Assembly: GCF_020497125.1 (NCBI RefSeq)
Contig: NC_059081.1
Location: 58,796,768-58,860,767, forward strand
Reading direction: 5' to 3'
Length of the DNA: 64,000 bases
From: Mauremys mutica
Lineage: Eukaryota > Chordata > Testudines > Geoemydidae
Shown here: piece by piece, positions 19,376-62,105 of the stretch
Layout: every line of letters starts with the position of its first letter
How positions within the stretch are numbered: the first letter of the stretch is position 1
Notes under the pieces: model-generated
What the model saw: only the letters and a program-made list of their open reading frames with translations
Database searches by the model: none
What the model was told of the DNA's origin: nothing
Position numbers and translations under genes: made by a program

Positions 19376-22300
19376 ATAGAATCATAGAATAGAATATCAG
19401 GGTTGGAAGGGACCTCAGGAGGTCATCTAGTCCAACCTCCTGCTCAAAGCAGGACCAATTCCCAACTAAATCATCCCAGCCAGGGCTTTGTCAAGCCTGA
19501 CCTTTAAAACCTCTAAGGAAGGAGATTCCACCACCTCCCTAGGTAACCCATTCCAGTGCTTCACCACTCTCCTAGTGAAAAAGTTTTTCCTAATATCCAA
19601 CCTAAACCTCCCACACTGCAACTTGAGACCATTACTCCTTGTTCTGTCTTCTGGTACCACTGAGAACAGTCTAGATCCATCCTCTTTGGAACCCCCTTTC
19701 AGGTAGTTGAAAGCAGCTATCAAATTCCCCCTCATTCTTCTCTACTGCAAACTAAACAATCCCAGTTCCTTCAGCCTCTCCTCATAAGTCGTGTGCTCCA
19801 GCCTCCTAATCATTTTTGTTGCCCTCCGCTGGACTCTTTTCAATTTTTCCACATCCTTCTTGTAGTGTGGGGCCCAAAACTGGACATAGTACTCCAGATG
19901 AGGCCTCACCAATGTCGAATAGAGGGGAATGATCACGTCCCTCGATCTGCTGGCAATGCCCCTACTTATACAGCCCAAAATGCCATTAGCCTTCTTGGCA
20001 ACAAGGGCACACTGTCGACTCGTATCCAGCTTCTCATCCACTGTAACTCCTAGGTCCTTTTCTGCAGAACTGCTGCCTAGTCATTCAGTCCCTAGTCTGT
20101 AGCAGTGCATGGGATTCTTCAATCCTAAATGCAGGACTCTGCACTTGTCCTTGTTGAACCTCATCAGGTTTCTTTTGGCCCAATTCTCTAATTTTGTCTA
20201 GGTCCCTCTGTATCCTATCCCTACCTCTAGCATATCTACCACTCCTCCCAGTTTAGTGTCATCGGCAAACTTGCTGAGAGTGCAGTCCATGCCATCCTCT
20301 GGATCATTAATGAAGATATTGAACAAAACCGGCCCCAGGACCGACCATTGGAGCACTCCGCTTGATACCGGCTGCCAACTAGACATGGAGCCATTGATCA
20401 CTACCCGTTAAGCCCAACAATCCAGACAGCTTTCTATCCACCTTATAGTCCATTCATCCAGCCCATACTTCTTTAACTTGCCGGAAAGAATACTGTGGGA
20501 GATCATATCAAAAGCTTTGCTGAAGTCATGGAATAACATATCCACTGCTTTCCCCTCATCCACAGACCCAGTTATCTCTCCATAGAAAGCAGTTAGGTTA
20601 GTCAGGCATGACTTACCCCCTTAGTGAATCCATGCTGACTGTTTCTGATCACTTTCCTCTCCTCTAAGGGCTTCAGAATTGATTCCTTGAGGACCTGCTC
20701 CATGATTTTTCCAGGGACTGAGGTGAGGCTGACTGGCCTGTAGTTCCCTGGATCCTCCTCCTTCGCTGTTTTAAAGATGGGCACTACATTAGCCTTTTTC
20801 CTGTCATCCAGGACCTCCCCCGATCACTACGAGTTTTCAAAGATAATGGCCAATGGCTCTGCAATCACATCCGCCAACTCCTTTAGCACCCTCAGATGCA
20901 GTGCATCCAGCCCCATGGATTTGTGCTCCTCCAGCTTTACTAAATAGTCCCGAACCACTTCTTTCTCCACAGAGGGCTGGTCATCTCCTCCCCATTCTGT
21001 GCTGCCCAGTGCAGCAGTCTGGGAGCTGATCTTGTTTGTCAAGACAGAGGCAAAAAAAAGCATTGAGTACATTAACTTTTTCCACATCCTCTGTCACTAG
21101 GATGCCTCCCTCATTCAGTAAGGGGCCCACACTTTCCTTGACTTTCTTCTTGTTGCTAACATACCTGAAGAAACCCTTCTTGTTACTCTTAACATCTCTT
21201 GCTAGCTGCAACTCCAAGTGTGATTTGGCCTTCCTGATTTCACTCCTGAATGCCTGAGCAATATCTTTATACTCTTCCCTGGTCATTTGTCCAATCTTCC
21301 ACTTCTTGTAAGCTTCTTTTTTGTGTTTAAGATCAGCAAGGATTTCATTGTTAAGCCAAGCTGGTCATCTGCTTTTTCTATTTTTACTACGCATTGGGAT
21401 GGTTTGTTCATGCAACCTCAATAAGGATTCTTTAAAATACAGCCAGCTCTCCTGGACTCCTTTCCCCTTCATGTTATTCTCCCAGGGCATCCTGGCCATC
21501 AGTTCCCTCAGGGAGTCAAAGTCTGCTTTTCTGAAGTCCAGGGTCCGTATTCTGCTGCTCTCCTTTCTTCCTTGTGTCAGGATCCTGAACTCGACTATCT
21601 CATGGTCACTGCCTCCCAGGTTCCCATCCACTTTTGCTTCCCCTACTAATTCTTCCTGGTTTGTGCGCAGCAGGTCAAGAGGAGCTCTGGCCCTAGTTGG
21701 TTCCTCCAACACTTGCACCAGGAAATTGTCCCCTACGCTTTCCAAAAACTTCCTGGATTATCTGTGCACCACTGTATTGCTCTCCCAGCAGGTATCAGGG
21801 TGATTAAAGTCTCCCAAGAGAACCAGGGCCTGCGATCTAGTAACTTCTGTTAGTTGCCGGAACAAAGCCTCGTACACCTCATCCCCCTAGTCTGGTGGTC
21901 TATAGCAGACTCCCACCACGACATCACCCTTGTTGCTCACACTTCTAAACTTAATCCAGAGACTCTCCGGTTTTTCTGCAGCTTCATACCAGAGCTCTGA
22001 GCAGTCATACTGCTCTCTTACGTACAATGCAACTCCCCCAGCTCTTCTGCCCTGCCTGTCTTTCCTGAACAGTTTATATACATCCAGGGTTTTTGCTACC
22101 CCAATCAGCCAGGGAAGGGGGGGGAAAAAAAAGTTGTGATCGGTGGCACTTCCACCGCGCTGCTTTCTTCTTCGGCGGCAATTCCGCAGCAGGTCCTTCC
22201 CTCCGAGAGGGACCGGGGGACCTGCCGCCGAAGAGCCCAATGTGCCGCCCCTTCCCTTTGGCCGCCCCAAGCACCTGCTTGCTCAGTTGGTGCCTGGAGC

Positions 22301-22635
22301 CGGCCCTGTATCCATCCATGACAGTACTCCAGTCATGTGAGTTATCCCACCACGTCTCTGTTATTCCAATCACATCATAGTTCCTTGACTGTGCCAGGAC
22401 TTCCAGTTCTCCCTGCTTGTTTCCCAGGCTTCTTGCATTTGTGTATAGGCACTTAAGATAACTCACTGATCGTCCTGCTTTCTCAGAATGAGACAGGAGT
22501 CTTCCCCTCTTGCGCTCTCCTGCTCGTGCTTCCTCCCAGTATCCCATTTCCTCACTTACCTCAGGGCTTTGGTTTCCTTCCCCCAGTGAACCTAGTTTAA
22601 AGCCCTCCTCACTAGGATTATCAGTCTGGATTATT
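19376..22635 (-). pseudogene. CR1 LINE, 5'-truncated and frameshifted ORF2
   Basis: The minus strand reads a CR1 ORF2 in broken pieces, in the correct order. The endonuclease start is at 22547-22270 ('TNARSLGNKQGELEVLAQ', 'ITETWWD', then 'GVALYVREQYDCSELWY'), the 'SDHEIVEF' motif at about 21610 and a lysine-rich linker at 21286-20981. RT follows with 'YRPVSLTSVPGKIMEQVL' (20784-20602) and 'FADDTKLGG' (20401-20198), and the C-terminal '[20 protein letters not shown]' and '[10 protein letters not shown]' segments run to 19466. The 3' end near 19376 has the 'AATCATAGAAT' style tail. Stops and frameshifts separate the pieces and a MITE sits at 22086-22309. It is not active. Confidence 0.93.
22086..22309. 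mobile_element. Non-autonomous DNA element inserted in the CR1
   Basis: A GC-rich block interrupts the CR1 endonuclease region. CR1-like sequence resumes on either side, and the flanks carry near-duplicate words (TATACATCCA before, TATCCATCCA after). The right end reads 'GGAGCCGGCCCTG', which inverted gives a CAGGGCCGGCTCC start. Family unknown; possibly hAT-like. Confidence 0.6.
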
Positions 22636-22639
22636 TTTC

Positions 22640-25433: not shown

Positions 25434-25934
25434 ACAATGTCTTCATACCTGTTAGTACAGACCCCAGCACACTGGGTCTCCAGTTTGATTGGGATCTGAA
25501 GATGCTGTAGAAATGTTAGTAGCAGTAGTTGATATCTGATCAGTATGTTAAATGTTGTTCAAATGAGAGGGATGCCAAGTAGCAACCCCAGGAGTCAATG
25601 GAAATGAAATCCCATTTTAAGCCCTGCAATAAGGGCCCCCATGGAAATTTGGGGTGGAAAGGCCCTGGTAGCCAGGAGAAGAAGAAAAAGTTGCTGAGAA
25701 CAGTGAGAGGCATGCGTGGCAGTAACTGGCAATGATGTGGTGCTGTGTGTTGGGGGAGCAGTAACTGGTAGTGATGAGGTGCCAGGATGCCAGGGGCATG
25801 AACTGGCATTGAGGGGGAACGCTGTGGGGCTACTAAGATTTTGGGGGGTGCAGTAAGTGTCATTGAGGGAGATGGGGGAGCAGTAACTGGCATTCATGGG
25901 GCAGGCAGTGGGTGGGGGAGGCGGTAACGGGTGG

Positions 25935-26625
25935 GGAGCGCGTGCTCTGAGTGTGTGGAGGATAACGGGGCGGGGGCACGCATGCGCTGAGTGTGTGGAG
26001 GATGACAGGCAGCGTGGGGGATGTGTGCGTGCTTTGAGTGTGTGGAGGATAACGGGGGGCGTGGGCACGTGTGCTCTGAGTGTGTGGAGGATAACAGGCG
26101 GCGAGGGGGGCGCGTGCCCTGAGTGTGTGGAGGATAACGGGCGGCGAGGGGGGCGCGTGCCCTGAGTGTGTGGAGGATAACGGGCGGCGAGGGGGGCGCG
26201 TGCCCTGAGTGTGTGGAGGATAACGGGCGGCGAGGGGGGCGCGTGCCCTGAGTGTGTGGAGGATAACGGGCGGCGAGGGGGGCGCGTGCCCTGAGTGTGT
26301 GGAGGATAACGGGCGGCGAGGGGGGCGTGTGCTCTGAGTGTGTGGAGGATAAAGGGGGGCGAGGGGGGCGCGTGCCCTGAGTGTGTGGAGGATAACGGGT
26401 GGCGAGGGGGGCGCGTGCCCTGAGTGTGTGGAGGATAACGGGCGGCGAGGGGGGCGCGTGCCCTGAGTGTGTGGAGGATAACGGGGCGTGAGGGGGGCGC
26501 GTGCTCTGAGTGTGTGGAGGATAACGGGCGGCGAGGGGGGCGCGTGCCCTGAGTGTGTGGAGGATAACGGGCGGCGAGGGGGGCGCGTGCCCTGAGTGTG
26601 TGGAGGATAACGGGCAGCGTGGGGG
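25935..26625 (+). repeat. 43-bp G-rich minisatellite, 16 copies
   Basis: A unit with GTGTGTGGAGGATAACGGG followed by a CGAGGGGGGCGCGTGC-like half recurs at 25951, 25991, 26038, 26080, 26122 and then every 43 bases to 26595. The last 12 copies are in exact register; the first four are irregular. The repeat lies about 140 bases inside ICA1L intron 1. Because 43 is not a multiple of 3 and the minus strand of the unit has no stop in any frame, frames of up to 387 residues run across it. These are artefacts. Confidence 0.95.
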
Positions 26626-27130
26626 AGGGGCGCGCTGAGGTGCGGGGCGGCGGGGCCCGGGAGCCCTGCGGAGGGGCAGTAGGTTTACGGTCAGGTGCCG
26701 TGAGGGGCAGGGATCCGTCTCCACCTCCCCAACCCGGCGTACGGCCACGGCCAGTCACTCACCGCCATGCAGCCTGCGGGGGCCGGTGCCGCTGACGGTT
26801 CCGGCCCGTTGGCCCCCACCCAGCGTTGTAGGGAGCCGCGGGCCGCCCTGGACCGGGTGCCGGCTGTGGAGCGTCCCTGGGACCAGGCGAGCCGCCCCGC
26901 CTCCGAGCACTCGAGACCGGTAGGGACTGTCTGTCACGGCGGGGCGGTTCAGGTGGCGGCTGGGGGTTGTACTGCCGTCCTGCCCCGCCCCGCCCCGCGA
27001 ACTGACACGGGCTAGTAGGGAACGGGGGGCATCCGTGACCCCAACCTGCAGAGCACCTGGCTCTGCCCCGGGGCCAGCAGGCCCACATCCCATTCCTCAG
27101 GCACCCCCTCCGCACCCCACTTTGTGCTGT
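26626..27130 (-). promoter_or_regulatory. ICA1L: CpG-island promoter and non-coding exon 1 of ICA1L
   Basis: The stretch is dense in CpG, with GC-box runs (CCCCGCCCCGCCCCGCG near 26983-27000), and is the only such island left of WDR12. On the minus strand a strong splice donor GCATGGCG|GTGAGT ends at 26763. This suits a non-coding first exon running from somewhere near 27000 down to 26763, spliced to the exon at 13321. The ATG next to the donor would then open only a three-codon upstream frame. The transcription start is not determined. Confidence 0.65.
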
Positions 27131-32066: not shown

Positions 32067-45990
<13,924 letters not shown>

Positions 45991-46483: not shown

Positions 46484-47059
46484 GCCTCACAGCAGGGTAG
46501 CGATTTCTTCTCCGTGCAACCTGTAAGCTTCAGTAAGGGCATTTGGGGGCCATTATTTCCGGGTTGTACGGTGGCCCGTGGGGACCAGATCACACGGTAG
46601 GGAGTGCGTTGCTGCGCCTGCGCTGTACGGCTGTCTCCATGGTGGTGCCTGCGAGAGCCAAGACGAGGTTGAGTAGACTCGTTCTGAATTTTCTCTCCGC
46701 TTCCCTGACTCCCCTGCAGGGTTCGCGGCAGCTGAGGCGGGAGGAGCCGCGCCCAGTCTGCCCTCCCCACCCCCACCGCGCGCGGGGCGTTCTGGCTCCC
46801 AGACCTGCCGGGGGCTGTGGGGCGGCGCCGCCGCGGAGGGGGGGGCAGCCCCCCGGGGCTATTGTTCTGCGGGGCCAACATGGCGGGGGCCCGGCTCTGC
46901 CGCCGGGAGGTCCTGGCAGCGCGGCCGCCGGCGCTGCTCGCCGCCCGGCGTGAGGAGAGGTAGAGCCGCTGCCCTGCCTCGCCCCCGCCGCGGGGAGTGG
47001 ACCCGGCCCGCAGCCCCTCAGTGCGGGGACGGACAGGGGAGGGCAGAGGGGACCGCTGC

Positions 47060-47440
47060 CATCAATGTGGGGGAGGGAGGGTCAGGACAGGACCCGCTGC
47101 CCCCCCCCAATGTGGGGAGGGGGGATCAGGACAGGACCCGCTGCCCCCCCCAGTGTGGGGAGGGAGGGTCAGGGCAGAACCCGCTGCCCCCCCCCAATGT
47201 GGGGAGGGAGGGTCAGGGCAGAACCCGCTGCCCCCCCCCCAATGTGGGGAGGGGGGATCAGGACAGGACCCGCTGCCCCCCAGTGGAGGGAGGGGGGATC
47301 AGGACAGGACCCGCTGCCCCCCAGTGGAGGGAGGGGGGATCAGGACAGGACCCGCTGCCCCCCAGTGGAGGGAGGGGGGATCAGGACAGGACCCGCTGCC
47401 CGCCAGTGAGGAGACGGGAGAGGGGTAGTTAGGACAGGAC
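47060..47440 (+). repeat. ~41-bp G/C-rich minisatellite in CARF intron 1
   Basis: Tandem units combining 'GGATCAGGACAGGACCCGCTG' type sequence with CCCCCC and GGAGGGAGGGG runs, about eight or nine copies. The last units repeat at 41-base spacing (47298, 47339); earlier ones vary to about 48. All three plus frames stay open (114-160 residues) and give different peptides. This marks a non-coding repeat. Confidence 0.92.
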
Positions 47441-52934: not shown

Positions 52935-54656
52935 GTGAGAGAATAGTTGGGACATGACTGTGTTTGAAGCTGGTTTCTTTCCATCCTCGGTGAAGAGTCT
53001 ACAACATCATAATCTGTTTACCTTGCACATCAATAAGCAATCTGTTTTTCTCTCATTATTTCACAATGGCTTTACACAACATATACTACTGTCTTTATAT
53101 TGATTTCTAATACAGATTAATTTGGAATGAGTGAATATCTGGTGTGATTCTCATCAGTTTGCATTCTGTTAGCAAAGCTAGAAAATCACATAAAAACACT
53201 TCGTTTCTTTCAATGGATGTATTTGTATGAACTTTTTTAATTTTAAACATTACTGAAAGATTTCAGTGAAGGAAATACCCATTGAAATGAGTGGGAGCTT
53301 CAGGTATTCAGCACTTATGAACATTAGGCTGCATATATTTGTGCACATTTTGATGTAGGAGTCTAACTTTAGGTACTGAGGTGTGAGAATTTTGGCTGTA
53401 GTTATATATTTCTAATCAAAATGTCTTTAATCCAGACAACATACATATGTGTTTCTTAGTTAATTCTACAATTTAAAATAATTATTTTGGCAATGTGATC
53501 ATACACCGTATGGTACAGGGTACATCTTAAAACAAATAGTCCATGCATTCATTGCCGTTACTCTAATTTATTTATAGGCCCCAAGCCACAAATCTTTTGT
53601 CTACTGAAAGTACAACAATGGGTACTAGATTTTTCATGCTATGTGGCCAGTTTCTGACCTGCATATAGAACTTAGAAACATTTTTCCAGTTATTAGAATT
53701 CGTCATTAACAAACTTTCTGTTGTACTAGTGATTAGGTCATAAAGGTTCAGAAAATAATGAATGTGTGATTTCTGGAAGAAGTTAAGCAAATTCCACTCT
53801 TCTTTTTAGGTTGCTCAGATGACATTAAAACACCCCATCATATGAGTTTCTTACAAGAAAGCTGTCTACTTTGGAGTTCTTATACATATTTTTCCTTCAG
53901 TCTAGTATTGTTTCTGAGTGTACCCAGATTGCTAATAGTGCAGAAGCTTCCTAGCTTCAGTTGATAGCTGCCAAACGAAAATGGAATGCGCTATAACCCT
54001 AGATCAAGTTTGACAGGTTTGGTGAGATCATAAGTATAGATTTTTAAGAGATGTTTACATAGCCCATTGATTCTCAGTCTTGCCATATGGAGCTTATGCA
54101 TTGTATTACTTTTTTGTACTGCCTCCATGCTTCATATTTGTATAAAAAAATTTGACAAAGATACTGTGTCAATTTCTATGTTGTGGTTCTATTGACAGCC
54201 AAAAATGAAAAAGTATTGATTTGAGACTCAAGTAGCATATTTACAGATTTTTAAGAAATTTGAATTAGAGATTTTAAAAATTATATTAGCTCATTTTCCC
54301 CTCCCCCCTTCCTTTTAAACCTTTGCCCTCTTGGTTTTAAGTCTTCTGGGTGGATCCAAGCATTTTATTTTGAAATGTAACTATTTTTGGAAGCAAGTCT
54401 TGGGTACAAGTGGTTTTGCTTCACCGTAGCAGAGAGTGATTATTTTAGGAGGCAGAATATAATATTTTCATCATGGAAGCAGGAACAGAAAATAAAATCA
54501 CTAGCCAATAGACACTTGAACACTTGGGGGGAAAGTTCCCTATGAGAATGAAACGTAGCAAGATATGTATAAAATATATTTAAATTATTATTTAAAATAG
54601 AAATAACAAGTTGATACTAAGATTAAGGTATATTTCACTGTTTTTCCCTGTAAAAG
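52935..54656. other. CARF intron, nothing recognised
   Basis: AT-rich intron between two coding exons; no repeat with clear ends. Confidence 0.55.
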
Positions 54657-54881
54657 CATCTAACCTGCATGGATTCCAGGGATCCATCCTTTGAACAGAA
54701 TGACTCTCCAGCAGTCTTGCCCATCACAGTGCATGTTTCAGACAATTCGTCTGTGTCATCGAATACACCAGTGCAGCTATCCCAGGCGCAACCTCTTTCC
54801 ACAGAAGAGTTCCATCTGGTAGACCAGAATGGCCAGCCTCTATATGAACTACAGTCACTAGGGGATTCCAGTACACAGATG
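54657..54881 (+). CDS. CARF: CARF second coding exon
   Basis: Exactly 75 codons, acceptor ...GTAAAAG before 54657 and donor GTGAGT after 54881, phase 0 at both ends. The translation begins HLTCMDSRDPSFEQNDSP and later has EEFHLVDQNGQPLYELQSLG, close to the human CARF N-terminus ('MDSRDSSFGQNDSP', 'FHLVDQNGQ', 'YELQSLGE') as recalled. The region is Ser/Thr/Gln-rich, as expected for an unstructured N-terminal part of this transcription factor. It joins in frame to the exon beginning at 63974, across an intron filled by a DIRS and an LTR element. Confidence 0.95.
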
Positions 54882-55042
54882 GTGAGTACATATAAAACCA
54901 CACACCTGCTGAGCTCACAAAAGAGGAACAGTGTTTAGGACAATGTCCTGAAGTGGTTTAGAGTTTCTATATAAAAATGTTTCAGACTCTGGGAACAAGA
55001 TGATGCTTCTCAGAGTGGTTTATTTAGTTCTTCTTTGAGTGA

Positions 55043-55208
55043 TTGCTCCAATGCATTCCAGTTAGGTGTGCGCGCCGCGCGTGCACGGCTCTTCGGAAGA
55101 TTTTTACCCTAGCAACTCCGGCGGGCCGGCTGGGCGCCCCCTGGAGTGGCGCCGCTATAGTGCAGAATATATACCCCAGCCGGCCCGTCCGCTCCTCAGT
55201 TCCTTCTT
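55043..55208 (+). repeat. DIRS left inverted terminal repeat
   Basis: 166 bases, inverted copy of 60878-61043 with only about three mismatches by eye (near 55052, and TGCAG against CGTAG near 55160). It carries a TATA-like GAATATATACCCC near 55166. The 79-residue frame inside is mirrored in the right repeat and is not a gene. Confidence 0.95.
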
Positions 55209-55388
55209 CCCGCCCGTGACGGCAGTCGGAACTGTGGAGTGCTCAGTAGTCCTCCACATCCCTAGCTCTCTCTACTTATTGTTGTATATAGTTCTTTACT
55301 GTTAGTATAGTTAGTTTTAGTAGTTAGTTAGCGTTTTAGATAAGGATAGGGGGAGTACTTCCTCCCTCCCCCTCCCCGGTGCGGGCTC

Positions 55389-57737
55389 ATGCCCAAGGCA
55401 CCGGGCTTTAAGCCCTGTGCAGCGTGCCAGAGGCCTATGCCAGTGGGTGACCCTCACGGCTCCTGCCTCCGTTGCCTGGGCGAGGCACACCGCACAGACA
55501 AGTGTGCCATTTGTTCGGCTTTTAAGCCGCGGACCCGTAAGGACAGAGACAGTCGCCTCAAACAGCTCCTTATGGAAGCGTCCCTCCAGCCCGCGGCACC
55601 GTCAGCGCCGGCGCCGAGGGCTTCTTCGGTGCAGAGTGCACCCGCGGCACCGACCGGCTCCGGCACCGTGCCCACGGTACCCAAACCGCCACCTAAGACG
55701 ACCCGGCACCGCTCGCTCTCGCCTTCACGCAAGCAGAAACTGGCGAAGGCTGTAGCGAAGGCACGCACAGAGTCCGCCACGAGAGTGGCTGCGGCAGTGC
55801 GTAAAGCGGGCCCTGAGCCCTCGACTCCGGCTCCGCAAGCGTCGTCGAGTCCACCGCCCCGCTCCCCGGCACCGACCGAGGTTGAGCCAAGGCTGCCTTC
55901 GACGCCGGAGACATTCTCCTCCGCGAGAGACCTGATCAGGTTCATAGAGGTTCCGAGCCTCCGGCCCCCGGCACCGCCGGTGCGGGCTGTTGTCTCTCTG
56001 GGCAAGCCAGCCAGGATGACAAGACCGCCCTCTATCGACGAGCGGCATGGATGACGGTCCCGGTCCTGGCGCAGGTCCCCGTCCCGCCGTTCGGGATCTC
56101 GTCGCCGCTCCTCTTCACGGCACCGAGCGCCATCCCGACGCCGGTCTGAGTCCCGGTACCGCTCTCGATCTCGGTACCGGTCGCACTCCCGGCACCGATC
56201 CAGGTCACCGTACCGTCGGTACCGTCGGAGGTCGTCTCGGCACTGCGACTCTCGGAGTCACTCCCGGCACCGCGGATCCCGGTCCCGGTCGAGCTCCCGG
56301 CACCGCCGAAGCCCACGCTCACGTTCACCGTCCCGTCGGCGCTCTGCGTATCGACCCTCGGTGCCGTCGGTGCAGGGCCTCCCGCCTTCAGCGGTTCAGT
56401 CCGTCGGCACCACAGCACCGCCTTGGCCATCCCGCACAGCGTCCGTGGCCTCCAGTGCCGATGATACTACCCACCGGTGGCCGACCCCACAAGGACTCCC
56501 TCATGAGCAGTGGGGCTACTGGGTCCCATGGGGACAGCATGAAGGGCAGGGTATCCCGTTTCCCAGAAGGGATGTGACCACCGGCACCAGGGTCCCTGAA
56601 GCGACTGTTAGCCGGCCGCCTCCCTCTCCTCCGCACGAGCCCTCTGCTCATCCGGCCTGCCAATCACCCATGCCTCACGATTCGGAGGAGGCTCAGCCAC
56701 CGGCCGTAGAGCCTGAGCCTGTTCTGCAGGGTGCATCTTCATCATCCTCGCCGGACGAGGCGGTGGCAGGTGCTGCGGCCAGCGAACCCCCGCCCATTGA
56801 CCTCTGGGCCTTCCAAGACCTGCTTCGCAGGGTGGCGGCGTCCATGAATCTTCCCGTCGAGGAGGTCCAAGAGGACGAGGATCCAATCACCAATGTGGTG
56901 GGTGCGGACGCTCCCGTCCGCGTGGCGTTACCCTTTGTCCGGACCATTCAAAAAAACGCCACTACGCTCTGGCAGACCCCCGCTTCCATTCCACCCACAG
57001 CACGCGGGGTCGAGCGGAAGTACTCAGCCCCACCATCAGGCTATGAGTACCTTTACTCCCACCCAACCCCGGACTCCCTCGTAGTCCAATCTGTTAACGA
57101 CCGCGAGAGGCACGGCCAACCTGCCGCTGCGCCTAAGTCCAAGGACGCCAAGCGCATGGACTTGCTCGGCCGTAAGATCTACTCCGCAGGGGGTTTGCAG
57201 CTGAGGATCGCAAACATCATGGTCCTCCTCGCCAGGTACGTCTTTGACATTCTGATGTCCCTGGCGAAGTTCACGGAGCTCCTGCCTTCCACATCACGCC
57301 AGGAGTTCTCCGCCTTGCTGGACGAGGGAAAGAAGTCCTCCCGGTCATCTATTACGGCCGCCCTCGACGCCGCGGACTCCGGGGCTCGGACCTTGGCATC
57401 CGGCGTGACAATGAGGCGCATCTCCTGGCTGCAGTCCTCCACCCTGCCGCCGGAGGTGCAGTATACCCTCCAGGACCTTCCCTTCGACACCCAGGGTCTG
57501 TTTTCCGAAAAGACAGATTCTCGGATCCAGACCATGAAGGACGGGCGCATTGCCATCCGCACGCTAGGCATGCATACGCCGGCGACGCAGCGCAGGCCCT
57601 TCCGGCCGCAGCCCTCCCGCTACCAACAGCGCTATCGCCCCTATGTCAGCCGACGACTGGCCCAAAATTGCCGTCCGTCCGTCCGGCAACCGCCGCAACC
57701 AGGGCCAGGCCGCTTCCAAGGCCCCTCAGGGGGCTAA
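55389..57737 (+). pseudogene. DIRS Gag frame with one premature stop
   Basis: A single frame of 783 codon positions from ATG 55389 to the stop at 57735-57737, interrupted only by TGA at 56052-56054 (codon 222). Residues 10-42 hold a Cys/His cluster C-x2-C-x12-C-x2-C-x4-H-x4-C-x2-C, likely zinc-binding. A Pro/Ala/Ser-rich stretch follows. Codons 223-322 form an arginine/serine (RS) region with many RS, RSR and SRH repeats. From about residue 510 comes a conserved capsid-like segment ('PFVRTIQKNATTLWQTP', 'GRKIYSAGGLQLRIAN', 'WLQSSTLPPEVQYTLQDLPF') that resembles LAP2-alpha, a known co-opted DIRS Gag. Gag proteins package the element RNA. The stop adjoins a CpG-rich Arg-codon run, so CGA-to-TGA decay is plausible. 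Confidence 0.88.
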
Positions 57738-59674
57738 GCAGGCCTTTTGATGGGGCGATCGAGGACGGCCCATCACTCTCCCTACCGGATCCTTCCCCTT
57801 TATTTTACAACCGCCTTTCCCATTTCTTTTCGGCGTGGTCCCGCTTAACATCGGACAACTGGGTGCTTCAAACAGTCCAGTCGGGATACCGCCTTCAATT
57901 TGTTTCACCCCCGCCTTCCCACCCACCCTCCCTGTCCCTCTTCAGGGACCCCTCTCACGAGCAAGTCCTCTTACAAGAGGTTCAGACTCTGTTGAGCGTG
58001 GGTGCCATAGAAGCAGTGCCTCAAGACAGGCGGGGCAGGGGATTCTACTCCCGTTATTTTCTCATCCCCAAGGCGAAAGGCGGGCTACGTCCTATCCTGG
58101 ACCTTCGCGAGCTGAACAAATACCTGCTCAAGCCCAAGTTTCGTATGGTCACCCTGGGGACCATTATTCCCTCCCTGGATCCGGGAGACTGGTTTGCCGC
58201 CCTCGACATGAAGGACACCTACTTCCATGTCGCGATCTATCCTCCTCATCGGCGTTACCTTCGGTTTGTGGTCAACAACGCCCACTACCAGTTCGCCGTG
58301 TTGCCATTCGGACTCTCCACGGCACCGAGGGTATTTACAAAATGCATGGCAGTCGTAGCAGCAGCCCTCCGCCGTCGTCAGATGCACGTCTACCCGTATC
58401 TCGACGACTGGCTGGTCCGAGCTCAGTCCCGTCAGCTCGTGATAGAACAGATGGCAGAAATTCTGTCTCTCTTTCAGCGGCTGGGTCTTCTCATCAACAC
58501 CGAGAAGTCCACTTTGTTCCCAACGCAGCGGCTGGAGTTCATCGGAGCGGTTCTCGACTCCACGGTTGCCAGGGCCTCTCTTCCTCGCGCCCGGCACCAG
58601 ACGATGGCCTCCATCATCCGGGATCTCGTCGCCTTCCCGACCACAACAGTGCGCTCCTGCCTACGCCTTCTGGGTCACATGGCCTCCTGCACATATGTCA
58701 CCGCATATGCGCGGCTCCATCTTCGCCCCTTCCAGTCCTGGCTCGCGACGGTGTACCGGCCTCATCGAGACCCCATCGACATGGTGGTCACGGTCAACAG
58801 GACGGCCCTCGACTCCCTCCGCTGGTGGCTCACCCCGGAGGTCGTGTGTGCGGGAGTCCCGTTCCATCCTCCTCGCCCATCCGTCACGCTGACCACGGAT
58901 GCCTCAGCGCTCGGTTGGGGGGCCCACCTGGGCGAGCTTCACACCCAAGGCCTTTGGTCGCCCCAGGAACTCGCGCTACACATCAATGTCCGCGAGCTCC
59001 GTGCCATCCGCCTCGCCTGCCGAACCTTCTGCTCCCACCTACAACGCCGTTGTGTAACAGTACTCACGGACAACACCGCTGCGATGTACTATGTAAACAA
59101 GCAGGGCGGAGCCCGCTCTTCCCCCCTCTGCGAGGAAGCGATCCTCCTGTGGGACTTCTGCGTGACCCACTCCATTCACCTAGAAGCGTCTTTTCTTCCG
59201 GGAGTGCAGAACACGCTGGCCGACCATCTCAGCAGGTCGTTTCTCTCCCACGAGTGGTCCCTTCGTCCCGACGTTGCACATACGATTTTCCAGAGGTGGG
59301 GGTTTCCCCGGGTCGACCTCTTCGCCTCCAAGGCGAACAGGAAGTGTCTCCACTTTTGCTCGTTCCGAGGTCACTCGCCGGGCTCTCTGTCGGACGCCTT
59401 CCTGTATCCCTGGCAGACTCACCTCCTCTATGCCTTCCCTCCTTTTCCGCTCGTGCACAGAGTGCTCCAGAAGCTGCGGAGGGATCGAGCCACCGTCATA
59501 CTCGTGGCTCCGGCCTGGCCGAGACAGCATTGGTACACCCTGCTGCTCGAGCTCTCCGTTCGGGATCCCATCCCCCTCCCGTTATGGCCGGACCTCATCA
59601 CGCAGGACTTCGGCAGACTCCACCATCCGAACCTGCAGTCCCTCCATCTTACAGCCTGCTACCTGCGTGGTTGA
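57668..59674 (+). CDS. DIRS reverse transcriptase - RNase H (668 aa, open)
   Basis: Starts at ATG 57668, overlapping the Gag end by about 70 bases in another frame. RT motifs include 'KGGLRPILDLRELNKYL', 'FAALDMKDTYFHVAI', 'QFAVLPFGLSTAPRVF' and the catalytic YLDD box at 58397-58408 (residues 244-247). RNase H follows with its acidic residues present: D411 (LTTDAS), E443 (NVREL), D468 (VLTDNT) and D519 (LADHLS). The C-terminal segment ('RVDLFASKANRKC', 'DAFLYPWQ', 'LLYAFPPFPLVHRVLQK', 'VILVAPAWPRQHW') is the conserved DIRS domain often described as methyltransferase-like. The frame is uninterrupted. It makes and degrades the RNA/DNA hybrid during element replication. Confidence 0.93.
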   Translation: MPSVRPATAATRARPLPRPLRGLSRPFDGAIEDGPSLSLPDPSPLFYNRLSHFFSAWSRLTSDNWVLQTVQSGYRLQFVSPPPSHPPSLSLFRDPSHEQVLLQEVQTLLSVGAIEAVPQDRRGRGFYSRYFLIPKAKGGLRPILDLRELNKYLLKPKFRMVTLGTIIPSLDPGDWFAALDMKDTYFHVAIYPPHRRYLRFVVNNAHYQFAVLPFGLSTAPRVFTKCMAVVAAALRRRQMHVYPYLDDWLVRAQSRQLVIEQMAEILSLFQRLGLLINTEKSTLFPTQRLEFIGAVLDSTVARASLPRARHQTMASIIRDLVAFPTTTVRSCLRLLGHMASCTYVTAYARLHLRPFQSWLATVYRPHRDPIDMVVTVNRTALDSLRWWLTPEVVCAGVPFHPPRPSVTLTTDASALGWGAHLGELHTQGLWSPQELALHINVRELRAIRLACRTFCSHLQRRCVTVLTDNTAAMYYVNKQGGARSSPLCEEAILLWDFCVTHSIHLEASFLPGVQNTLADHLSRSFLSHEWSLRPDVAHTIFQRWGFPRVDLFASKANRKCLHFCSFRGHSPGSLSDAFLYPWQTHLLYAFPPFPLVHRVLQKLRRDRATVILVAPAWPRQHWYTLLLELSVRDPIPLPLWPDLITQDFGRLHHPNLQSLHLTACYLRG

Positions 59675-60723
59675 CCCACGCAGAGAGGGACTGTTCAGCG
59701 GCCGTGCAGCAAATCCTGCTTGAGAGCAGAAAGCCTTCCACTCGCTCCACCTACCTGGCGAAATGGAAGAGGTTCGCGCTCTGGTGTGACCAACAAGGGC
59801 TCAACCCTTTCGTCGTACCCGTCCCTACCATCTTGGACTACCTTTGGTACCTTAAGGAGCAAGGTCTGGCGGTCTCCTCCTTGCGGGTACACCTGGCAGC
59901 GGTGTCCGCTTTTCGTCCTTCTCTGGAAGGTCGCTCCATCTTTTCCAATCCGATGGTCTCCCGCTTCCTGAAAGGCCTGGACCGATTGTACCCGCCGGTG
60001 CGGCGTCCGGCCCCAACCTGGGATTTGAACCTCGTCCTGTCCAAACTCATGGGTCCGCCATTCGAACCGATGGCCACGTGTTCTCTTCTTTACCTCTCCT
60101 GGAAGACGGCCTTCCTCGTCGCCATAACATCGGCCAGACGAGTCTCGGAGCTCCGGGCGCTGACGGTAGGTCCGCCATACACCGTCTTCCACACAGACAA
60201 GGTGCAGCTTCGTCCGCATCCGGCCTTCCTGCCAAAAGTGGTCTCGGCTTTCCACCTCAATCAGGACATCTTTCTCCCGGTCTTCTTCCCGAAGCCCCAT
60301 GCCTCGCCTCGGGAACAACAGCTCCACACCCTCGACGTCCGTAGAGCGCTCGCTTTTTACATCGAGCGGACGAAACCTTTTCGGCGTTCTACACAGCTCT
60401 TCATAGCAGTCGCCGATCGCATGAAAGGCGAGCCGGTCTCTTCCCAACGCATCTCCTCCTGGGTAACTCAATGCATCAGAGCATGCTACGAGCTGGCTCG
60501 CGTGCCCCCGGGCCGCTTCACCGCTCATTCCACGAGGGCGCAAGCCTCGTCTGCCGCCTTCCTGAGCCATGTCCCCATCCAGGACATCTGTAGAGCGGCC
60601 ACATGGTCTTCGGTCCACACCTTCGCCTCCCACTACGCGTTGGTGCAGCAGTCTCGAGACGACGCAGCCTTCGGCTCAGCTGTTTTACACTCTGCCACGT
60701 CTCACTCCGACCCCACCGCCTAG
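57835..60723 (+). CDS. DIRS tyrosine recombinase frame (YR domain ~59650-60660)
   Basis: An open frame of 962 codons in the +2 register relative to RT. The first ~1.8 kb overlaps the RT frame and reads as a Pro/Ser/Arg-rich string without domains; the true start is unknown. The recombinase begins near 59650 ('LTHAERDCSAAVQQILLESR', 'STRSTYLAKWKRFALWC') with a SAM-like N-terminal part. Catalytic residues are visible: Arg in ARRVSEL (60139), His and Arg in HSTR (60526 and 60535), Trp in ATWSS (60604), His in ASHY (60631), and the nucleophile Tyr at 60634. All are intact. The enzyme joins the circular DNA copy to the target and replaces the integrase of other retroelements. Confidence 0.92.
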   Translation: MVPLNIGQLGASNSPVGIPPSICFTPAFPPTLPVPLQGPLSRASPLTRGSDSVERGCHRSSASRQAGQGILLPLFSHPQGERRATSYPGPSRAEQIPAQAQVSYGHPGDHYSLPGSGRLVCRPRHEGHLLPCRDLSSSSALPSVCGQQRPLPVRRVAIRTLHGTEGIYKMHGSRSSSPPPSSDARLPVSRRLAGPSSVPSARDRTDGRNSVSLSAAGSSHQHREVHFVPNAAAGVHRSGSRLHGCQGLSSSRPAPDDGLHHPGSRRLPDHNSALLPTPSGSHGLLHICHRICAAPSSPLPVLARDGVPASSRPHRHGGHGQQDGPRLPPLVAHPGGRVCGSPVPSSSPIRHADHGCLSARLGGPPGRASHPRPLVAPGTRATHQCPRAPCHPPRLPNLLLPPTTPLCNSTHGQHRCDVLCKQAGRSPLFPPLRGSDPPVGLLRDPLHSPRSVFSSGSAEHAGRPSQQVVSLPRVVPSSRRCTYDFPEVGVSPGRPLRLQGEQEVSPLLLVPRSLAGLSVGRLPVSLADSPPLCLPSFSARAQSAPEAAEGSSHRHTRGSGLAETALVHPAARALRSGSHPPPVMAGPHHAGLRQTPPSEPAVPPSYSLLPAWLTHAERDCSAAVQQILLESRKPSTRSTYLAKWKRFALWCDQQGLNPFVVPVPTILDYLWYLKEQGLAVSSLRVHLAAVSAFRPSLEGRSIFSNPMVSRFLKGLDRLYPPVRRPAPTWDLNLVLSKLMGPPFEPMATCSLLYLSWKTAFLVAITSARRVSELRALTVGPPYTVFHTDKVQLRPHPAFLPKVVSAFHLNQDIFLPVFFPKPHASPREQQLHTLDVRRALAFYIERTKPFRRSTQLFIAVADRMKGEPVSSQRISSWVTQCIRACYELARVPPGRFTAHSTRAQASSAAFLSHVPIQDICRAATWSSVHTFASHYALVQQSRDDAAFGSAVLHSATSHSDPTA

Positions 60724-60738
60724 GTAAGGCTTGGGAAT

Positions 60739-60842
60739 CACCTAACTGGAATGCATTGGAGCAATCACTCGAAGAAGAAAAGACGGTTACTCACCTGTAG
60801 TAACTGTTGTTCTTCGAGATGTGTTGCTCCAATCCATTCCAG
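60739..60842 (+). repeat. DIRS internal complementary region (terminal-junction copy)
   Basis: Positions 60739-60779 are complementary to the left tip (55028-55068), and 60776-60842 are complementary to the right tip (61025-61091). The two halves overlap at AGAA. The left half carries the left-specific AATGCATTGG and the right half the right-specific CCAATCCATTCC. The region thus equals the inverted sequence of the joined ends, the template expected for circularisation. Confidence 0.93.
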
Positions 60843-60877
60843 ACCCGCCCTCCTTCCCCACTGTCGGAGTAGCCGGC

Positions 60878-61043
60878 AAGAAGGAACTGAGGAGCGGACG
60901 GGCCGGCTGGGGTATATATTCTACGCTATAGCGGCGCCACTCCAGGGGGCGCCCAGCCGGCCCGCCGGAGTTGCTAGGGTAAAAATCTTCCGAAGAGCCG
61001 TGCACGCGCGGCGCGCACACCTAACTGGAATGGATTGGAGCAA
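60878..61043 (-). repeat. DIRS right inverted terminal repeat
   Basis: Inverted counterpart of 55043-55208. Beyond it, 61044-61091 is the unique right tip ('CACATCTCGAAGAACAACAG' onward to CCGTCTTTTCT). Confidence 0.95.
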
Positions 61044-62105
61044 CACATCTCGAAGAACAACAGTTACTACAGGTGAGTAACCGTCTTTTCTCAGTTGCCT
61101 CTGCTCAGGTCTCCAGATCCTGAGTTAAGCCATTACTGACTTTAATTCATAAAAATCTAATGTGCTTCCATCATATTCTCAAACTGTATAGAAGACCATC
61201 TCACAGTGGGAACAGTCCTCAAAGCTCCCATTCTTCTTTCTCCCCTTTACTGCTTACTCTTTCCTCCTCGTCTCTCTACTGCTACCCTATGAGCCACTTT
61301 TGCTGAATGTTGGGAATTGTGAACACAATAGATTTGTAAGGTATCATTACAAAGTTTATAGAGACCTTTTGCATGAAGCATATTCCAGTTACATTATATT
61401 CACATTCTAAGCATATTTTCAGAAAGCATATGGAGTGCAATGTCACACCTTCCTCCTGAACTTACTGCCAGCGACATTGTCCATGGCGGAGGTAGTACAT
61501 CTAAAATTTCTTTTTTTTTGGATAGGGCATTTGCTACCCAGTTCTCTTTTCTTCTCCTCCTGAGCATCTTTCTGTGCTTCAGTCTTTTTGTGTTTTAAGT
61601 CCCAGTGCTTGCTGGTGTGCAGCCCTTTGTTTGGCTGCTTCTGCCTTTATGGCAGCCTTTTCCCGTGCATATTGCGCATCAATTTCCATTTGCTCGATGA
61701 GCTGGGATACCACAGAGAACAACCCTCCTGCCAGAACAGGCATCCCTCCACTCCTGTCTTGCTGAATTAGACACTCCAGTCAGCTACAGCACAGACCCAG
61801 AGGTTGGGCCACGCCTCACTGCAGTTCACTGAAACTGAAATCCACTCAGCTCAGGGGCTTCTTAGTTAACAGGGACTTTCCCAGCGCCCAGTGTTCAGCC
61901 TTCATGGGCAATTTGCAACCTGTGTAGTTCTAGCTTCTCGTCTTCACTCTTACTTATTTGCTTACTTTTCTGTCCCTATTTCTCTTACCCAAAATAAGCA
62001 AACAGAAAATAACAAACCAGTAATCACTTTGTCTGTTCTCCAGCCAGCACACTTAAGATTCACTTAAAATCACTACCAGTGTCTCAAAGCAATCAACTGT
62101 GCACA

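What the first reader, a model, noticed from the sequence alone, without database searches (positions are those of the whole stretch)
55028..61091. Nearly intact DIRS retrotransposon inside a CARF intron
The element keeps inverted terminal repeats, the internal complementary region, open RT-RNase H and tyrosine-recombinase frames with all catalytic residues, and only one stop codon (in Gag). The two terminal repeats differ at about three of 166 positions. DIRS elements are patchily distributed, so a copy this complete in a turtle suggests recent activity.
Basis: partly seen in the sequence, partly recalled or inferred. Interest (0 to 1): 0.75.

Follow-up and report, generated by a model that had tools for sequence, protein, structure and literature searches.

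The report
Young, complete turtle DIRS retrotransposon copy
A nearly complete, recently inserted copy of a known kind of jumping gene (DIRS, which pastes itself in with a phage-like recombinase) sits in an intron of a turtle gene; the element type is ordinary for turtles, though its Gag protein has an unusual splicing-factor-like stretch worth a test.

Summary
Window 55028-61091 is a DIRS1-like tyrosine-recombinase retrotransposon in sense orientation, 146 nt downstream of a CARF exon. It has both inverted repeats, the two-part internal complementary region, open RT/RNase H and recombinase frames (Cre-like predicted fold), and one in-frame TGA in Gag without frameshifts. The conserved inverted repeats differ at 2 of 155 positions; other tip differences are element design, because the internal region copies each tip. 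CpG observed/expected is 0.92, against 0.37 in the left 10-kb flank; a neutral-decay estimate makes more than 0.5-1% divergence since insertion unlikely. So the insertion is young; present activity is untested, because the own-genome search did not complete (6 tries).

"Patchily distributed" is not supported: relatives occur in many turtles, lizards, newts, frogs and coelacanth, and a recombinase tree broadly follows the hosts. Turtle DIRS elements with LAP2alpha-like Gag were published in 2015.

Less expected: Gag joins a zinc-type motif, a strong RS (arginine-serine) tract and a LAP2alpha-like domain, and the first kilobase of gag carries many CGGCACCG copies, read in three frames. Three literature searches showed no report of the RS tract. 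Function and conservation of the array are untested.

The parts
54654..54881 (+). CARF coding exon upstream of the insertion (3' end from the GTGAGT donor; 5' end approximate)
   Evidence: tblastn with recalled human CARF, 64% over 78 aa, E 3.5e-21; donor sequence
55028..61091 (+). whole DIRS1-like element (55027-61089 by the trinucleotide convention)
55028..55208 (+). left ITR: divergent tip 55028-55053, conserved part 55054-55208; TATATA at 55168
55378..55402 (+). predicted hairpin enclosing the gag ATG
   Evidence: fold of 55195-55420, z -3.61, 0 of 200 shuffles as good (the z-score is for the whole leader, not the hairpin alone)
55389..57737 (+). gag frame from ATG 55389; interrupted by TGA at 56052-56054
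55416..55514 (+). Gag N-terminal C/H zinc-type motif (CxxC-HxxCxxC-H-CxxC)
   Evidence: motif scan; same pattern in 3 of 36 gag-search proteins
55389..56369 (+). many copies of CGGCACCG / CGGTACCG, in three reading frames
56055..56369 (+). RS (arginine-serine) tract, best 100 aa 75% R+S, 18-nt periodicity
56787..57599 (+). LAP2alpha-like Gag domain (stretch that was modelled)
   Evidence: PF11560 E 0.0014, under cut-off; 2v0x E 0.086; Foldseek ranks 1 and 2 = 2v0x
57248..59674 (+). RT-RNase H-MT frame; Pfam RVT_1 E 3.5e-20; weak Dam match E 0.025; no ATG before 58145
57751..60723 (+). tyrosine recombinase frame, recombinase proper about 59665-60723, ATG at 59584; long overlap with RT
60739..60842 (+). 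internal complementary region (left part 60739-60779, right part 60776-60842)
60878..61091 (+). right ITR (conserved part 60878-61032) and right extension; CAG|GTGAGT donor at 61070-61078

Best explanation
It is a young, nearly complete member of a turtle DIRS1-like family. Inferred cycle, by established DIRS biology: transcription starts in the left ITR; Gag packages the RNA; RT-RNase H copies it; the internal complementary region bridges and restores both tips and gives a circle; the Cre-like recombinase crosses the circle into a short target without target-site duplication. Here the circle went in behind a CARF exon, leaving only short junction identity (TTCT). Shown: anatomy, open enzyme frames, Gag stop, youth. 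Inferred: the cycle, and that this copy now needs full-length Gag from another copy or is inactive. Proposed, untested: the RS tract and LAP2alpha-like domain of Gag bring the complex into the nucleus and onto chromatin.
For: Tip-specific differences are mirrored by the internal region. Conserved ITR 2/155. CpG o/e 0.92 against 0.37 in the left 10-kb flank and 0.20 in the right flank; TpG not raised (0.88 against 1.18). P of at most 1 stop and no frameshift is 0.04-0.06 at 0.5% and 0.001-0.003 at 1% divergence. Recombinase model matches Cre and its derivative Tre (best E 6.9e-10) and lambda integrase (E 1.2e-5). Pfam RVT_1 E 3.5e-20. Recombinase groups with two Gopherus proteins, support 99/98, end branch 0.17 against 0.17 and 0.21. 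Anatomy agrees with Anolis and Xenopus DIRS in Piednoel 2011 section 10.
Against: No other copy of the family was seen as DNA; the nearest proteins are 70-87% identical, so activity in this species is not shown. One stop in Gag and two RT-frame changes at otherwise uniform columns suggest that this copy is not autonomous. The decay estimate takes the present sequence as the start and assumes indels at 12% of substitutions, 80% frame-shifting. Conversion by younger copies could make an older copy look young. Pfam hits for recombinase and MT are under their cut-offs.
Confidence: 0.9

Rival explanations
1. The insertion is old, and its frames are kept by selection because the host uses Gag or recombinase, perhaps as a CARF isoform like TMPO/LAP2alpha and ZNF451 in mammals.
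For: Sense orientation behind a CARF exon with a perfect splice donor at the right end; published precedent for DIRS Gag domains captured by splicing.
Against: Gag holds a stop; the non-coding conserved ITRs differ at only 2 of 155 positions; CpG o/e is high in left ITR (1.02) and in all coding parts alike (0.88-0.96).
Confidence: 0.04
2. An older insertion looks young because other copies converted it or because the assembly merged copies.
For: The group is repetitive in turtles (Abascal 2015); not tested here.
Against: No N in the window; end branch of the recombinase is like those of two Gopherus proteins. The right flank was not verified as CARF intron.
Confidence: 0.06
3. The family came into this turtle lately by horizontal transfer.
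For: No copy very close to it in the protein collection: best full-length recombinase match 80%.
Against: The recombinase tree puts it inside a turtle clade (98/97) beside Gopherus, in an order that broadly follows the hosts.
Confidence: 0.02

Closest known systems
DIRS1-like elements of Western painted and Chinese soft-shell turtle (Abascal et al. 2015, PMC4495291)
   Same: LAP2alpha-homologous Gag followed by DIRS RT, RNase H and recombinase domains; ITRs
   Different: The two parts of the text read give no single insertion, no RS tract and no nucleotide array; best painted turtle RT relative is 70% identical over 80%
AcDIRS2 of Anolis carolinensis (Piednoel et al. 2011, PMC3266345, table 3)
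   Same: 5997 bp, start TTT, AAA junction, right extension 28, divergent ITR 26, conserved ITR 136, ICR 39-60, long ORF overlap
   Different: Here 6064 bp, start GTT by the same convention, conserved ITR 155, ICR 41 and 67
Gopherus flavomarginatus recombinase proteins P0157/P0158
   Same: 79-80% identical over 100%; sister in the tree
   Different: Annotated as uncharacterized proteins; DNA not available here
TMPO LAP2alpha (PDB 2v0x)
   Same: Predicted long helical hairpin; ranks 1 and 2 in Foldseek, E 0.019 and 0.065, probability 1.00 and 0.98
   Different: 11-20% identity; host protein, not element-borne
SR proteins / SRRM2
   Same: RS tract; 5 of 36 gag-search proteins are named 'serine/arginine repetitive matrix protein 2-like' by annotators
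   Different: No RRM found by Pfam; zinc-type motif and LAP2alpha-like domain instead

Membership tests
DIRS1-like (YR) retrotransposon | inverted terminal repeats | tested here: met
   187-nt arms, 94%; conserved part 2 mismatches in 155
DIRS1-like (YR) retrotransposon | internal complementary regions overlapping at a circular junction, right extension | tested here: met
   41 nt 98% and 67 nt 100%, overlapping by 4 nt
DIRS1-like (YR) retrotransposon | RT with YLDD and RNase H | tested here: met
   RVT_1 E 3.5e-20; RT_RNaseH E 0.00011, just under its cut-off; YLDD and RNase H acidic residues invariant in 10 sequences
DIRS1-like (YR) retrotransposon | methyltransferase-like (MT/DAM) domain | tested here: inconclusive
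   PF05869 E 0.025, under the cut-off, downstream of RNase H as expected
DIRS1-like (YR) retrotransposon | tyrosine recombinase with HSTR motif, no DDE integrase | tested here: met
   AHSTR and Tyr present; Cre-like fold; no integrase-core Pfam hit at E up to 1 in the four pieces scanned; Phage_integrase E 0.0043, under cut-off
DIRS1-like (YR) retrotransposon | no target-site duplication | tested here: met
   by eye only TTCT is shared at the junctions; the empty site itself was not seen
LAP2alpha domain (PF11560) | curated Pfam score | tested here: inconclusive
   18.6 bits against cut-off 25; relatives P0016 and P0041 carry PF11560
LAP2alpha domain (PF11560) | fold of the LAP2alpha dimerization domain | tested here: inconclusive
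SR protein family | RS domain | tested here: met
   75% R+S in best 100 aa, 37 RS/SR dipeptides
SR protein family | RRM | tested here: not met
   none found by Pfam at E up to 1 in the two Gag pieces; so not a member, at most SR-like

The most novel reading that the evidence does not exclude
Turtle DIRS Gag is an SR-like protein: a zinc-type motif, an RS tract and a LAP2alpha-like domain together take the reverse-transcription complex into the nucleus by the host SR-protein kinase and import route and tether it to chromatin, while the CGGCACCG/CGGTACCG array and the hairpin at the gag start are the RNA signal that Gag recognises for packaging or dimerisation.
Probability: 0.2. Interest if true: 0.6.

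Novelty: new member of a known kind. Interest (0 to 1): 0.3.

Why it matters
As a single locus it is an ordinary, well-kept young copy of a group known in turtles since 2015. It matters as a readable example of how DIRS termini are kept (tip differences locked by the internal region, ITR interiors nearly identical), and because its Gag points to a testable idea about how DIRS elements, whose ORF1 shows no clear homology to retroviral Gag (Abascal 2015), handle RNA and reach chromatin, and why such Gag domains were captured by TMPO and ZNF451 in mammals.

Tried and rejected
Own-genome copies: the genome search with the 118-nt stretch 60739-60856 gave 'busy or cannot be reached' six times. Other DNA: the RT protein and RT alignment A1 found no relative in viral contigs (3 and 36 stretches matched a pattern, none confirmed). 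The 18-base tip pattern gave 1 viral and 4 bacterial contigs, taken as chance and not read. No other copy of the element lies in the rest of the window by blastn, E up to 1e-3. 'All ITR differences are mutations since insertion' was rejected, because the internal region carries both tip versions. The first YR query was in the wrong frame. The CCCAAAA heptamer at 57661 is out of phase for -1 slippage; GGGAAAG at 57326 and CCCTTTA at 57796 are in phase but unproven. VIA-align ranks unrelated helical proteins level with LAP2alpha, so the fold match rests on Foldseek rank together with weak sequence similarity. The gag search scored only the 7980 candidates sharing most words, so Gags outside turtles may be missed. 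Against the array as a signal: see the controls in the full report.
Full report
What is there. The element runs from 55028 to 61091. Its outer parts are inverted repeats; between the recombinase stop (60721-60723) and the right repeat lies a two-part region complementary to the left tip (60739-60779, 98%) and to the right tip (60776-60842, 100%). This is the arrangement lITR-lICR-rICR-rITR-rE described for DIRS1-like elements (PMC3266345, section 10 read). The two tips differ from each other, and the internal region copies each tip. Piednoel calls this the 'divergent ITR', so these differences are design and not age. In the conserved part, 55054-55208 against 60878-61032, 2 of 155 positions differ.

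Coding. Gag: frame 55350-57737, ATG at 55389, one TGA at 56052-56054, same frame on both sides. RT-RNase H-MT: 57248-59674, no ATG before 58145, RVT_1 E 3.5e-20. Recombinase: frame 57751-60723, with an ATG at 59584; it matches Pfam integrase models only under their cut-offs (E 0.0043 and 0.0046), but has 325 relatives at E up to 0.001 (120 listed) and a model (pLDDT 79.8) whose best Foldseek matches are Cre and its derivative Tre (E 6.9e-10). In an alignment of this copy with 9 RT proteins, which I picked from 120 listed, the residues taken as catalytic (labels recalled) are invariant; this copy departs at 2 of 531 gap-free columns where the nine others agree, against 0 to 19 for the others; among 16 recombinases (this copy and 15 picked from 120 listed) it departs at 0 of 296, against 0 to 5 (alignments).

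Where. The nearest upstream host exon matches CARF at 64% over 78 aa (human sequence recalled). Its donor begins at 54882, so the insertion is 146 nt downstream, in sense. The next exon was not detected in the window. The host is a turtle by its closest proteins: all 29 named proteins of the 36 found with Gag are from turtles (7 are unnamed). The species is not identified.

How old. CpG observed/expected is 0.92 in the element, 0.37 in the left 10 kb and 0.20 in the right flank; TpG is not raised in the element (0.88 against 1.18 in the left flank), as it would be had CpGs decayed. Under neutral decay, starting from the present sequence and with my assumption of indels at 12% of substitutions and 80% of them frame-shifting, the chance of at most one stop and no frameshift over 5373 nt of frame is 0.22-0.26 at 0.25% divergence, 0.04-0.06 at 0.5% and 0.001-0.003 at 1% (three CpG settings). 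The ITR count agrees: P of at most 2 differences is 0.40 at 1% per arm and 0.05 at 2% (without CpG weighting). The insertion is therefore young, on the order of a few million years or less if turtle rates near 1e-9 per site and year apply (recalled). Whether the family still moves was not testable: the genome search did not complete.

Is it remarkable in a turtle? No. Abascal et al. 2015 (parts 1 and 2 of 3 of the text read) took 792 regions from painted turtle and report RT_DIRS1 in 642 and RNase_HI_RT_DIRS1 in 594. The recombinase search lists relatives in Gopherus, Chelydra, Eretmochelys, Chrysemys, Chelonia, Pelodiscus, Carettochelys, Dermochelys, newts, coelacanth, lizards and frogs. A tree of the window and 22 proteins, hand-picked from the 120 listed, groups the turtles (98/97), splits Pelodiscus and Carettochelys from other turtles, and puts the window with two Gopherus proteins (99/98); 12 of 20 inner branches are well supported and 5 are open. 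This fits long vertical residence. The Xenopus paper (PMC9210276, passages) reports a LAP2alpha domain in ORF1 of all its DIRS-like families.

What is less expected. (1) Gag begins with a C/H zinc-type motif, found also in 3 of 36 gag-search proteins; of the 10 proteins printed, 7 begin downstream of it and 1 inside it. (2) An RS tract follows: 75% R+S in the best 100 residues and 37 RS/SR dipeptides; 13 of 36 gag-search proteins exceed 40% R+S in 100 residues, against 3 of the 240 listed from the RT and recombinase searches. That contrast is weak as a control, because few of those carry Gag: 8 of the 120 listed RT hits show PF11560. Two newt proteins with Gag reach only 41-43% with 8 RS/SR dipeptides. 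The DNA of the tract has an 18-nt period (0 of 1000 codon shuffles reach the observed value at 18 or at 36 nt). Annotators named 5 of 36 relatives 'serine/arginine repetitive matrix protein 2-like'. (3) A LAP2alpha-like domain: weak by sequence, Foldseek ranks 1 and 2 are 2v0x though none of 191 matches is under E 0.001, model confidence only moderate (pLDDT 62.8). I saw no report of an RS domain in DIRS Gag in three searches: 20 of 189 papers listed, none listed with both DIRS and 'serine arginine'; 0 papers; 9 papers, listing only.

(4) The first kilobase of gag is strewn with CGGCACCG and CGGTACCG: 14 GGYACCG in gag against a mean of 0.5 and maximum of 3 in 300 dinucleotide shuffles, and 1 in pol plus recombinase. 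Shuffling synonymous codons, which keeps the protein, gives mean 3.2, maximum 9 (1000 shuffles). The motif was picked after the fact, so I compared the commonest 8-mer: 10 copies observed in 55389-56369, at most 5 in 500 synonymous shuffles. The 14 sites are read as RHR/RYR (8), AP (5) and GTV (1), in three frames. The number of sites outside the commonest frame exceeds all of 300 synonymous shuffles for 55389-56369, but within the N-terminal part alone it does not stand out clearly (66 of 300 for 7-mers, 8 of 300 for 8-mers). Against a special function: third-order Markov sequences reach the observed counts in 14 of 500 (N-terminal part) and 39 of 500 (RS part), and flanking similarity (families D7, D8) fits spread by duplication. 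No DNA of relatives was at hand to test conservation.

(5) Of 3 perfect MAG|GTRAGT donors in 64 kb on both strands, two belong to the element: 61070 (+, right tip) and 60797 (-, internal region). Because the internal region copies the tip, any copy with this tip should carry both (inference). This might help exonization of sense insertions; Abascal inferred that the captured sequence brought an acceptor and a polyadenylation signal. I did not look for acceptors, and there is no AATAAA or ATTAAA on the + strand of the element. No transcript was examined.

Verdict. Confirmed observation, ordinary kind, young copy; the 'recent activity' reading is reasonable for the insertion but not shown for the family, and the 'patchy' argument fails.

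Noticed in passing
window 55389-56369: Many CGGCACCG/CGGTACCG copies in gag, used in three reading frames, above synonymous-shuffle controls; could be a cis RNA signal or out-of-frame duplication.
   Followed up: partly
window 61070-61078 (+) and 60797-60789 (-): Two of the three perfect 9/9 splice-donor matches in the 64 kb belong to the element's right tip and its internal copy.
   Followed up: partly
window 55378-55402: Predicted hairpin enclosing the gag ATG; leader 55195-55420 folds with z -3.61 (0 of 200 shuffles as good).
   Followed up: partly
window 57326 and 57796: In-phase slippery-type heptamers GGGAAAG (gag to RT) and CCCTTTA (RT to recombinase), each a possible -1 site; unproven.
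   Followed up: no
window 25860-26758 (-): Long minisatellite-like stretch, open in several frames with a repeated peptide.
   Followed up: no
window 46954-47432 (+): GC-rich tandem-repeat-like stretch, open in three frames, upstream of the CARF exons.
   Followed up: no
window 19742-22637 (-) and 40999-41427 (+): Frames that look like CR1 LINE polyprotein fragments (resemblance recalled, not searched).
   Followed up: no
window 35289-40391 (-): WD-repeat-like exons that look like WDR12, the neighbour of CARF in other vertebrates (recalled, not searched).
   Followed up: no
P0004, P0014, P0022, P0026, P0028 (Mauremys): Annotated turtle proteins that match Gag are named as calcium channel, GIMAP, venom factor, zinc-finger and golgin proteins; may be gene-model artefacts or real splice capture.
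   Followed up: no
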